Made by a program: the position numbers and the translations under genes | From: Treponema denticola ATCC 35405 | GTDB taxonomy: Bacteria > Spirochaetota > Spirochaetia > Treponematales > Treponemataceae | Direction: 5' to 3' | Length of the DNA: 64,000 nucleotides | Assembly: GCF_000008185.1 (NCBI RefSeq) | Contig: NC_002967.9 | Location: forward strand, 186,001 to 250,000 | The notes under the pieces: generated by a model | The model's input: only the letters and a program-made list of their open reading frames with translations | Databases searched by the model: none | Told to the model about the DNA's origin: nothing | Shown here: piece after piece, positions 46,602-49,784 of the stretch | How positions within the stretch are numbered: position 1 is the first letter of the stretch | Layout: each line of letters opens with the position of its first letter

Positions 46602-46710
46602 GTATAAAAATAACGCTATTTTCGGCTTTCCGGTAATAGTCTTGACAAAGACATATAATCACTATTGACTATATGCATAAACTATAATAGAATTATGTAT
46701 GGAGGATAAA

Positions 46711-46905
46711 ATGAGAACAACTATTGTATTAAATGAGTCAAAGATTCAACAAGCTTTTGCATTGACAAAAATAAAAACCAAAACAGAGCTCATTGAAGTT
46801 GCCATTGATAATTTAATAAAAAAATATCAAATTCAAGACCTAAAAAGCTATTTTGGTAAATGCAACTTAGAAATAGACCTTGATACTTTAAGGAATAGAG
46901 CTTAA
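46711..46905 (+). CDS. vapB: VapB-type antitoxin
   Basis: A 64-residue protein with an N-terminal ribbon-helix-helix-like segment (MRTTIVLNESKIQQAF, then TKTELIEVAIDNLIKK), followed by a C-terminal tail that would wrap the toxin. The start at 46711 is chosen for GGAGGataaaATG; an in-frame ATG four codons upstream lies in that Shine-Dalgarno. The stop shares a base with the start of the toxin gene. The upstream region has a TATGCATA palindrome at 46672-46679 and a TATAAT at 46683-46688, suitable for autoregulation. Confidence 0.88.
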   Translation: MRTTIVLNESKIQQAFALTKIKTKTELIEVAIDNLIKKYQIQDLKSYFGKCNLEIDLDTLRNRA

Positions 46906-47285
46906 TGGTTTTAGTAGATACGTCTGTTTGGATTGAATATTTTAGAGGGAACGAACAGGTTAAAAATTTAAATGACCTTATAGATTCAAATACTCTTGCG
47001 ATAAATGATTTGATTTTAACAGAACTATTGCCATTTATAATACAAAAAAAAGAAAACAAGCTAAAAAAACTGTTATTGAACTTGGACAGGATAAAGATGA
47101 ATATAGACTGGAACGGTTTGATTCAAATGCAAACATTAAATCTGCAAAACGGAATAAACAAAGTCGGAATTCCAGATTTGATTATAGCACAAAATGCTAT
47201 ACAAACCAATTTACATCTTTATAGTTTAGATAAACATTTCAAATTAATGAGCTCATTATTTGGGCTAAAACTTATACATAAATAG
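46905..47285 (+). CDS. vapC: VapC-type PIN ribonuclease toxin
   Basis: A 126-residue PIN-domain toxin, an RNA-cleaving enzyme restrained by VapB. The acidic site is D5 (VLVDTSVWIEYFRG), E40 (LTELL), D91 (GIPDLIIA) and D109 (SLDKHF). It is translationally coupled to VapB (TAATG). It is followed only 9 nt later by an asparaginase-like gene, so that gene may be cotranscribed with the toxin-antitoxin pair. Confidence 0.9.
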   Translation: MVLVDTSVWIEYFRGNEQVKNLNDLIDSNTLAINDLILTELLPFIIQKKENKLKKLLLNLDRIKMNIDWNGLIQMQTLNLQNGINKVGIPDLIIAQNAIQTNLHLYSLDKHFKLMSSLFGLKLIHK

Positions 47286-47294
47286 GAGATCAAA

Positions 47295-48284
47295 ATGGAA
47301 ATACTTTTAAAATCTTATAGGGGCAAAATTGAAGACCTTTATACATTCGGTTCAATCGCCGTAGTCGATAAGAACGGCAAGATTGTATACTCGGCAGGAG
47401 ACCCAAAGGAAGTATCCTTTCCGCGTTCAAGTGCAAAACTTATTCAGGCTCTGGTGCCTCTTTCATTGGGTGCCAAGGAAAAGTTCAATCTAAGCCATGA
47501 AGAAATAGCTCAAATCTGTGCCTCCCATTCAGGCGAAGATTTTCATATAAAAACCGTAACGGGAATATTAAAAAAGATAGGACTTGATGAAAGTGCCTTA
47601 AAGTGCGGCCCCCACTATCCTTTTAAACCGGAAGTAGAATTGAGAATGAAGGTAAATAATGAAAAACCTCGCGATATTCACAATAATTGCAGCGGAAAGC
47701 ATTCCGGTATGCTGGCGGCAGCCGTATTAATGAAAGCTTCTACTGACGATTATTACAAGCCTCAGCACCCCGTTCAGCAAAAAATAAGAGAAATGATAGA
47801 GCTGATCTGCGATTGCAAGATTCCCGATGATAATATCTCGGTTGACGGCTGCGGAGTTCCGGTTCACTCCCTGCCCCTTTACAATTTTGCATTCGGAATG
47901 GCAAGAATGGCCGACTATAAAAACCTGCCTCAAAATTTATCTACCCATGCGAAGGACATAATAGATTCCATAACAGCCTGTTCCGAATACACTTCCGGCA
48001 CGGATAGAATAGACCATCTCTTGGTAAAAAAATATCCCGAGAAACTTGTTGTAAAATCGGGAGCAAACGGATATTTCGGCGGCCTTTTACCCGATAAAAA
48101 ATACGGCATTGCCGTCAAAACCTATGACGGAATTTCAAAAACCAGAGATATCGTTTTGGTTCACTTATTAAAAAAACTCGGTGTAATCGATAAAGCCGAT
48201 TACGAATATTTTGATAATCTTGCCGATAAAAACATCAAAAATCATCGGGGTGAAACAGCAGGAGAGGTTGTTCCTCAGTTTTAA
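47295..48284 (+). CDS. L-asparaginase II family protein
   Basis: A 329-residue protein of the asparaginase II family (PF06089 type), distinct from the classical bacterial asparaginases. Typical stretches are VSFPRSSAKLIQALVPL, ASHSGEDFH, NNCSGKHSGMLA, DGCGVPVHSLPL and VKSGANGYFGGLLP. It probably hydrolyses asparagine to aspartate and ammonia in the cytoplasm. Its start follows AGGAG, directly after VapC. Confidence 0.9.
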   Translation: MEILLKSYRGKIEDLYTFGSIAVVDKNGKIVYSAGDPKEVSFPRSSAKLIQALVPLSLGAKEKFNLSHEEIAQICASHSGEDFHIKTVTGILKKIGLDESALKCGPHYPFKPEVELRMKVNNEKPRDIHNNCSGKHSGMLAAAVLMKASTDDYYKPQHPVQQKIREMIELICDCKIPDDNISVDGCGVPVHSLPLYNFAFGMARMADYKNLPQNLSTHAKDIIDSITACSEYTSGTDRIDHLLVKKYPEKLVVKSGANGYFGGLLPDKKYGIAVKTYDGISKTRDIVLVHLLKKLGVIDKADYEYFDNLADKNIKNHRGETAGEVVPQF

Positions 48285-48288
48285 CTTT

Positions 48289-48699
48289 TTAACTCATAAA
48301 GCGGCAGTTTGAACAGCCTAGAATATGAACCCGCTTTTTTCCTTTTTTTCGGTCGAAGTATCTTGCAATTAGATGAGCTTCATTTGGAACAGTCTTATGG
48401 CAAACGGGACATTGACGCTGCACACCCTTTTCACAACCGGGATAACAATGCGGACAGCCGTATATATAGCATAATCTATCATCCGCTCCCGGATACACAG
48501 CCGATTTTACCTGTTCATCTCTAGCCAAAACAGTACCGCAAACAGGGCAAACTCCTGGGGACCCTTTTTTCCCCGTTTGCCTAATCTTTTTGCCGCTTGC
48601 ATGTTTTGCAGATGCACTAAAAAGAACATAAGCGAATACAATTAAAAAAAGGCCTATAAAAACTAATATCATCCATGATAAAGGCTGTAAATCCGTCAT
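48289..48699 (-). CDS. Membrane-anchored zinc-ribbon protein
   Basis: A 136-residue protein with one N-terminal membrane segment (about 9-29), a basic stretch and then several paired cysteines: CPVCG, CPHCYPGC, CPVCH and CSNC near the C-terminus, giving two probable zinc ribbons. No known enzyme domain. The start at 48699 (MTDLQPLSW) is preferred over 48798, because the latter would run across the divergent rsmI promoter. There is no Shine-Dalgarno; the promoter ends 6 nt before this ATG. Confidence 0.78.
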   Translation of the reverse strand: MTDLQPLSWMILVFIGLFLIVFAYVLFSASAKHASGKKIRQTGKKGSPGVCPVCGTVLARDEQVKSAVYPGADDRLCYIYGCPHCYPGCEKGVQRQCPVCHKTVPNEAHLIARYFDRKKGKKRVHILGCSNCRFMS

Positions 48700-48705
48700 A
48701 AATAC

Positions 48706-48734
48706 ATCATACACCTTTTTTTCTATTGATTCAA
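48706..48734 (-). promoter_or_regulatory. Promoter of the zinc-ribbon gene (leaderless type)
   Basis: TTGAAT (48734-48729) and TATGAT (48711-48706), spaced 17 bp, ending 6 nt before the ATG. Its -35 overlaps that of rsmI by 3 bp within the palindrome ATTGATTCAAT (48725-48735). Confidence 0.65.
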
Positions 48735-48754
48735 TACTAAAACTATGATATAAT
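48726..48754 (+). promoter_or_regulatory. Promoter of rsmI (leaderless type)
   Basis: TTGATT (48726-48731) and a perfect TATAAT (48749-48754), spaced 17 bp, ending 6 nt before the GTG start at 48761. Confidence 0.65.
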
Positions 48755-48760
48755 GAATAA

Positions 48761-49432
48761 GTGGGAATTTTATTTGTGGTTGCCACTCCTATAGGCAATC
48801 TAAAAGATATCAGTTTTAGAGCTTTAGAGACTTTTCAAGAAGCCGATTTTATCGCCTGTGAGGATACGAGGCACACTTTAGGCCTTTTAACTCATTATGA
48901 GATCTCAAAGCCTTTAATTTCGTGCAGGGCTGTAAATGAAGCCGCCGCCTCCGAAAAAATTGTAAAACTTTTAGATGAAGGGAAAAAAATAGCCTATGCA
49001 AGCGACGCGGGAACACCGGCAATCAGCGATCCGGGCTCTATTTTAGTAAGGACGGCAAGGAAAGCAGGGCATACAATAATTCCGATTCCGGGTGCGTCAG
49101 CCTTTGGTGCTATAATGAGTATAGCTGGAACCTACGACAAAACGGTAGTGTTTGAGGGTTTTTTGTCGCCTAAGGCCGGAAAACGCAAACGGAGGCTTCA
49201 AGAGCTATTTGACTTTGGGGCAGGCTTTGTTTTATATGAATCCCCTTATAGAATCGTAAAGCTCTTAGCCGATATTGCCGAAATAGATAGTAACCGTGAG
49301 CTTATTATAGGGAGGGAGCTTACAAAACTCCATGAAGAGATTATCAAGGGGCCGGCAAGTGAAGTTTTGCAAAATTTTGAAAAAAGGCCCTCGATAAAAG
49401 GGGAATTTTCTGTTTTTGTTACAGGAAAATAG
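48761..49432 (+). CDS. rsmI: 16S rRNA 2'-O-methyltransferase RsmI
   Basis: A 223-residue SAM-dependent methyltransferase that modifies the ribose of C1402 in 16S rRNA. Family motifs are FVVATPIGNLKDISFRAL at 5-22, CEDTRHT near 38, ASDAGTPAISDPGS near 82 and PIPGASA. It is shorter than the E. coli enzyme (about 286) and lacks the C-terminal extension. The start is GTG because the conserved N-terminus begins there and a promoter -10 lies only 6 nt upstream; there is no Shine-Dalgarno. Confidence 0.93.
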   Translation: MGILFVVATPIGNLKDISFRALETFQEADFIACEDTRHTLGLLTHYEISKPLISCRAVNEAAASEKIVKLLDEGKKIAYASDAGTPAISDPGSILVRTARKAGHTIIPIPGASAFGAIMSIAGTYDKTVVFEGFLSPKAGKRKRRLQELFDFGAGFVLYESPYRIVKLLADIAEIDSNRELIIGRELTKLHEEIIKGPASEVLQNFEKRPSIKGEFSVFVTGK

Positions 49433-49453
49433 ACTTTTATAAAAATAAAACCT

Positions 49454-49480
49454 TAACTTTTGATAAAGATTAACCGATAA
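49454..49480 (+). promoter_or_regulatory. Sigma-28 (FliA)-type promoter of flgM
   Basis: TAACTTTT (6 of 8 to TAAAGTTT), 11 nt, then ACCGATAA (7 of 8 to GCCGATAA). The -10 is part of a perfect palindrome TAACCGATAATCGGTTA (49471-49487). The ATG of flgM follows 22 nt after the -10. Confidence 0.6.
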
Positions 49481-49502
49481 TCGGTTAGGAAGGCAGGAAA
49501 AC

Positions 49503-49784
49503 ATGATGATAGAAAAATTGGGCGGAATTGATCCGATCAAAAATTTACAAAACACTCAAAAACCAAGAAGAATGGAAAAGGTAGAAGTTTCCGATTCAGT
49601 GCAAGTATCTCCTGAAGCTCAAAAATTATCGGAAATTTATTTTGCAATGGATGCAGTAAAGGCTGCTCCGGATATCCGCCGGGAAAAGATAGAAGAAGTT
49701 GCAAGAAAACTTCAAGATCCTTCATATATAGACAGTATTTTGGATCAAACAGCAGATAAAATTTTAGACTCTTTGGGATTTTAA
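49503..49784 (+). CDS. flgM: Anti-sigma-28 factor FlgM
   Basis: A 93-residue protein with an unstructured N-terminal half and a helical C-terminal half. DSVQVSPEAQKLSEIY and APDIRREKIEEVARKLQDPSYID are typical of FlgM. It holds the flagellar sigma factor inactive until the hook-basal body is complete. No flagellar genes neighbour it. The sigma-28-type promoter immediately upstream would give the usual feedback loop. AGGA lies 6-7 nt before the ATG pair at 49503 and 49506. Confidence 0.85.
   Translation: MMIEKLGGIDPIKNLQNTQKPRRMEKVEVSDSVQVSPEAQKLSEIYFAMDAVKAAPDIRREKIEEVARKLQDPSYIDSILDQTADKILDSLGF

What the first reader, a model, noticed from the sequence alone, without database searches (positions are those of the whole stretch)
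48725..48735. One palindrome serves as both -35 elements of divergent leaderless genes
ATTGATTCAAT is a perfect 11-bp palindrome. Its right-reading TTGATT is the -35 of rsmI and its left-reading TTGAAT the -35 of the zinc-ribbon gene, each 17 bp from a good -10 that ends 6 nt before a start codon. RNA polymerase cannot occupy both at once, so expression of an rRNA methyltransferase and a membrane zinc-ribbon protein would be mutually exclusive per DNA copy.
Basis: partly seen in the sequence, partly recalled or inferred. Interest (0 to 1): 0.65.

Follow-up and report, generated by a model that had tools for sequence, protein, structure and literature searches.

The report
Two opposite promoters sharing one -35
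Two neighbouring genes that point away from each other in oral and gut spirochaetes appear to start from two promoters sharing one recognition box, so that RNA polymerase can sit there in only one direction at a time; the layout is kept in 28 species of five genera, but whether it works as a switch is untested.

Summary
ATTGATTCAAT (48725-48735) holds two overlapping -35 elements (TTGATT for rsmI, TTGAAT for a membrane double-CXXC gene). Each is 17 bp from a -10, which ends 6 nt before a start codon. The spaced composite is unique in its genome. In 255 family genomes it occurs 10 times, always between rsmI and this gene.

Comparison takes it further. The 11-mer itself is confined to the T. denticola group, but its skeleton TTG-N3-CAA, with both -10s at the same spacing, occurs in 28 sampled genomes of five genera. 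The middle varies and the six outer bases never do. In 13 species with saturated fourfold sites (38% identity) those six are 100% identical. Where the second gene is not close by, rsmI keeps TTG but CAA is found in only 2 of 36 family promoters, against 27 of 28 where it is close. Two functional, overlapping -35s is therefore the best reading.

"Mutually exclusive expression" is overstated. Simultaneous occupancy is sterically implausible, but at E. coli bidirectional promoters basal transcription shows no competition (PMC12825309). A regulatory effect is inferred, not shown. I call it a new variant of overlapping divergent promoters.

The parts
48725..48735 (.). ATTGATTCAAT, inverted repeat (5-bp arms, 1-bp centre); its conserved skeleton is TTG-N3-CAA (48726-48734)
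   Evidence: Sequence; once in window; TTG and CAA invariant in 28 genomes of 5 genera, N3 variable
48726..48731 (+). -35 element TTGATT of the rsmI promoter
   Evidence: 17 bp from TATAAT; TTG at 17-18 bp from the -10 in most rsmI promoters of the family with or without the second gene
48729..48734 (-). -35 element TTGAAT of the zinc-ribbon gene promoter; shares 48729-48731 with the rsmI -35
   Evidence: 17 bp from TATGAT; its TTG (CAA on + strand) present in 27/28 family loci where the gene is close, 2/36 where it is not
48746..48754 (+). extended -10 (TGA TATAAT) of rsmI promoter
   Evidence: TACACT in G002 (same sequence as T. putidum L032), TATAAT in G001, G004, G006
48706..48711 (-). -10 element TATGAT of the zinc-ribbon gene promoter
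   Evidence: invariant in five genomes of the genus
48761..49432 (+). rsmI, 16S rRNA (cytidine1402-2'-O)-methyltransferase, GTG start, predicted leaderless
   Evidence: TIGR00096 204 bits over cut-off 168; PDB 5hw4 RsmI E 8e-44; -10 ends 6 nt before the start, no Shine-Dalgarno, same in most relatives
48289..48699 (-). divergent gene: short protein with N-terminal hydrophobic helix and four conserved CXXC pairs (double zinc ribbon), function unknown, predicted leaderless ATG
   Evidence: No Pfam/NCBIfam family over cut-off; conserved C..C, GC..C.P, CPVC, GC..C.MS in 77 aligned locus sequences, some loci overlapping; in 51 of 59 relatives
49503..49784 (+). flgM-like anti-sigma-28 gene, possibly read through from the rsmI promoter
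   Evidence: PF04316 38 bits over cut-off 25; 70 bp downstream of rsmI

Best explanation
The 61-bp spacer is two back-to-back housekeeping-sigma promoters fused at the -35. One 9-bp core, TTG-N3-CAA, gives sigma domain 4 a TTG on each strand; the two hexamers share the three middle base pairs. From this core each strand has 17 bp to its own -10, and each -10 lies 6 nt before a start codon, so transcription should begin at or next to the start codon on both sides (leaderless mRNAs). Shown by comparison: both -35 TTGs, both -10s and both start codons are under selection, at fixed spacing, in five genera. Inferred from known structures: sigma cannot occupy both -35s at once, so polymerase binds in one orientation or the other. 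Inferred, and probably weak: at ordinary firing rates both genes are transcribed from the same copy in turn, with rsmI favoured (extended, consensus -10); real competition arises only if one side becomes strong. I think the layout is mainly a compact, inherited arrangement of two leaderless genes, with competition as a possible by-product.
For: Exact geometry. Unique in own genome; 10 hits in 255 family genomes, all at this locus, 0 controls. 28 genomes in g1, g3, g14, g18, g20 with TTG/CAA invariant and N3 varying: ATT, TCG, CCG, TTA, CGA, CGG, CTT. In 13 g3/g18 species: fourfold-site identity 0.38, spacers 0.53, discriminators 0.30-0.50, but TTG/CAA 1.00, -10(+) 1.00, -10(-) 0.90. Where the divergent gene is not close, CAA is absent in 34 of 36 family rsmI promoters while TTG stays; in same-genus G007 rsmI keeps TTGATT but reads TTGATTTTA, and its copy of the gene lies elsewhere with internal stops. 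Predicted leaderless rsmI start recurs across most of the family and the order; leaderless mRNAs are common in the spirochaete Leptospira (PMC5243855). Basal bidirectional promoters show no polymerase competition (PMC12825309).
Against: No transcript data. The zinc-ribbon side is weak in several genera (CATTAT, CAATAT as -10). Related species are not independent: only about 3 informative independent contrasts, nearly always in the expected direction but sign test p 0.25. The 110-column tree is poorly resolved and needs at least four gains or losses. In other sampled families of the order the starts can be as close (D 63-66) but TTG-N3-CAA is absent, and in g6, g10, g11, g13 the spacer is longer, so sharing is not obligatory for the pair.
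Confidence: 0.8

Rival explanations
1. Same anatomy, but a true either/or switch: polymerase competition at the shared -35 makes rsmI and the zinc-ribbon gene anticorrelated, and this is why it is conserved.
For: Overlap of the two -35s makes joint binding sterically implausible; competition is real at bidirectional promoters once one side is strong (PMC12825309); spacing TTG-N3-CAA shows no indel in 28 genomes while the discriminators do (D 62 or 63).
Against: Basal promoters in the same study showed no competition. Absence of indels in 3 bp is not significant against about five in 12 bp of discriminator (my estimate, P about 0.3). Several genera keep the gene pair with longer spacers.
Confidence: 0.15
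2. TTG-N3-CAA is the operator of a dimeric regulator that covers both promoters, not two -35s.
For: It is symmetric and invariant in 28 genomes; arms extend to 5 bp in g1 and g14.
Against: Arms are only 3 bp in most g3, g18 and g20 sequences. Each TTG sits exactly 17 bp from a -10. rsmI keeps TTG at that spacing even where the mirror half is lost. The full composite is found nowhere else in 255 genomes, though a regulator site alone was not searched for.
Confidence: 0.06
3. Only the rsmI promoter is real; the mirror half is chance or descent.
For: The rsmI side scores higher in every genus with the shared core, and single consensus hits are no more frequent than chance here.
Against: CAA and the second -10 stay fixed across saturated divergence and CAA is rare where the gene is not close.
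Confidence: 0.05

Closest known systems
Prokaryotic bidirectional promoters (Warman, Grainger and colleagues; PMC12825309, PMC10268837)
   Same: Pseudo-symmetric core that can engage RNA polymerase in either orientation but not both; divergent mRNAs.
   Different: There the -10 is shared and the start sites lie 7-25 bp apart, usually 18. Here the -35 is shared, the -10s are separate and predicted starts are 62 bp apart; that work does not count separate divergent promoters as bidirectional.
Overlapping back-to-back (divergent) promoters of regulator/target gene pairs (general knowledge)
   Same: Two promoters pointing apart with overlapping polymerase footprints.
   Different: No regulator gene and no operator seen here; both genes predicted leaderless; exact 3-bp sharing of the two -35 hexamers kept in 28 sampled genomes.
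Leaderless genes of spirochaetes (Leptospira interrogans map, PMC5243855)
   Same: Start of transcription at or within a few bases of the start codon.
   Different: Predicted here from sequence only, in Treponema, and for both members of a divergent pair.

Membership tests
sigma-70-type promoter (rsmI side) | -35 and -10 hexamers, 16-18 bp apart, conserved at fixed distance from the gene | tested here: met
   TTGATT-17-TATAAT; conserved in genus and, in form, across the family
sigma-70-type promoter (zinc-ribbon side) | -35 and -10 hexamers, 16-18 bp apart, conserved | tested here: met
   TTGAAT-17-TATGAT; TTG invariant in 28 genomes, -10 weaker but conserved in place
Bidirectional promoter as defined by Warman et al. 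| divergent start sites 7-25 bp apart around a shared -10 | tested here: not met
   Predicted starts 62 bp apart, separate -10s, shared -35 (definition)
Bidirectional promoter as defined by Warman et al. | polymerase binds in one orientation at a time | not testable with these tools
   Expected from overlap of the two -35s; needs footprinting
Leaderless gene | -10 ends about 6 nt before the start codon, no Shine-Dalgarno | tested here: met
   6 nt on both sides; 5-7 nt for rsmI in most relatives; few such genes in the window
Leaderless gene | mapped 5' end at the start codon | not testable with these tools
   No Treponema start-site data found in the library
RsmI (TIGR00096) | score over curated cut-off | tested here: met
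   204.4 bits against 167.9

The most novel reading that the evidence does not exclude
A class of bidirectional promoter that shares its -35 rather than its -10, conserved in one spirochaete family, in which polymerase orientation choice at a single TTG-N3-CAA core sets the ratio of a ribosome-modifying enzyme (and the anti-sigma factor FlgM downstream) to a membrane zinc-ribbon protein.
Probability: 0.15. Interest if true: 0.75.

Novelty: new variant of a known kind. Interest (0 to 1): 0.5.

Why it matters
Known bidirectional promoters share a -10. A conserved example that shares the -35 shows another way for two transcripts to depend on one polymerase-binding site, and the lineages with and without the second gene nearby are a ready natural comparison for testing polymerase competition. 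It also suggests that a leaderless rsmI is widespread in treponemes.

Tried and rejected
TATAATN{2,16}ATG over the genome lists mostly matches that cannot be tied to genes; the first listed ones show no clear peak at 6. A search for published shared -35s found nothing relevant; the library is open-access only and short phrases with '-35' search badly. A pure consensus scan was rejected as evidence because hits equal chance. An indel argument for constraint on the 3-bp centre was dropped as not significant. The strict composite misses g3, g14 and g18, mostly because their second -10 starts with C or G, so the counts are a lower bound.

Full report
What is there. The window is G000:C1:186001-250000 of a 2,843,201-bp single-contig genome; its size matches Treponema denticola ATCC 35405 from memory, and T. 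putidum (L032, NZ_CP009228) is a 96% protein neighbour. Between rsmI (GTG 48761, + strand) and a divergent small gene (ATG 48699, - strand) lie 61 bp. The rsmI side reads TTGATT-17 bp-TATAAT-6 nt-GTG, with TGA just before the -10, and the other side TTGAAT-17 bp-TATGAT-6 nt-ATG. The two -35 hexamers overlap by three base pairs inside ATTGATTCAAT. rsmI is confirmed by TIGR00096 and by the solved RsmI 5hw4. The other product has an N-terminal hydrophobic stretch and four CXXC pairs conserved in 77 aligned locus sequences (some loci overlap), and belongs to no curated family.

Is it more than chance? By itself a two-hexamer hit is worth nothing here: 10 hits in this region against 9.7 in shuffles. 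The composite is different. The pattern CAT-N6-ANNNTA-N14-TTGNNNCAA-N14-TANNNT-N6-RTG is found once in the genome, and one mismatch brings in nothing else. Over 255 genomes of the family it is found in ten, always between rsmI and this gene, with no hit for the reversed pattern.

Comparison. rsmI is in 56 of 59 and the small gene in 51 of 59 sampled relatives, often side by side and divergent, also in other families of the order and in three families elsewhere in the class. In the T. denticola group (G001, G002, G004, G006) the 11-mer is identical, and both -10s are kept apart from TACACT for rsmI in G002. In other genera the 11-mer is gone but the skeleton stays: g3 mostly TTGTCGCAA, with TTGCCGCAA and TTGTTACAA; g18 TTGCCGCAA; g20 TTGCGACAA or TTGCGGCAA; g14 TTGCTTCAA. 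The 17-bp spacings and the 6-7-nt distances to both start codons are the same in nearly all; in G105 (TTGTTACAA) the scan preferred another -10/-35 pair for the small gene.

Selection. Among 13 g3/g18 species the fourfold sites of rsmI agree at only 38% (saturated), the spacers at 53% and the discriminators at 30-50%, while TTG and CAA agree at 100% and the -10s at 100% (rsmI) and 90% (small gene). The six fixed bases and the two -10s are therefore kept by selection. Because the middle three bases vary and the arms are often only 3 bp long, a regulator's operator is a poor reading.

Natural controls. When the small gene is not close, rsmI keeps its TTG-17-(-10)-N6-start. The mirror CAA is then found in 2 of 36 family promoters, against 27 of 28 where the gene starts within about 66 bp (exception L014; the two strays are L015 and L024). 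In G007, from the same genus, rsmI reads TTGATTTTA and its copy of the gene lies elsewhere with internal stops. These counts are inflated by relatedness. The tree of 110 columns is poorly resolved, and only about three independent contrasts are informative, nearly always in the expected direction, which cannot reach significance.

Leaderless starts. The 6-nt distance from the -10 to the start codon, with no Shine-Dalgarno, recurs for rsmI across most of the family and in ATG form in other families. Within the window such genes are few. Leaderless transcripts are common in Leptospira (PMC5243855). No start-site map of a treponeme was found in the library.

Mechanism. Sigma domain 4 needs the -35 as double-stranded DNA, and the two hexamers share three base pairs, so polymerase should bind in one orientation at a time (inference). 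This does not make expression mutually exclusive. At five E. coli bidirectional promoters, which also exclude joint binding, basal activity was too low for competition, and competition appeared only when one side was strengthened or activated (PMC12825309). I therefore take the arrangement as a compact pair of leaderless promoters with an orientation choice for polymerase, and a regulatory effect as possible but unproven.

Relation to known kinds. The published class of bidirectional promoters shares the -10, with start sites 7-25 bp apart. This locus fails that definition and works on the same principle at the -35. I found no published example of shared -35s kept over genera, but the search was limited.

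Noticed in passing
49433-49502: Between rsmI and flgM lies TTAACCGATAATCGGTTA, which holds a sigma-28-type -10 (CCGATAA). Similar ATCGGT sequences precede flgM-like starts in many relatives (minus-strand rows), so flgM probably has its own sigma-28 promoter besides read-through from rsmI.
   Followed up: partly
48284-48289: The asparaginase-II gene (47295-48284, +) and the zinc-ribbon gene (48289-48699, -) converge with stop codons 4 nt apart and no obvious terminator, so their transcripts probably overlap as antisense.
   Followed up: no
G007:C1:826714-827110: A zinc-ribbon homologue in the same genus, away from rsmI and broken by internal stops.
   Followed up: partly
G026 (1.1-Mb genome): The smallest relative lacks the zinc-ribbon gene, and its rsmI match is split into two pieces in one open frame.
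   Followed up: no
46699-47285: A pair of small genes that looks like a VapBC-type toxin-antitoxin pair (by eye: PIN-like start MVLVDTSVWIEYFRG).
   Followed up: no
L136, L137, L138 (other orders of the class): The same divergent pair with a very short spacer, but rsmI there seems to have a Shine-Dalgarno (GGAGGAT before GTG), so the leaderless start is not universal.
   Followed up: partly
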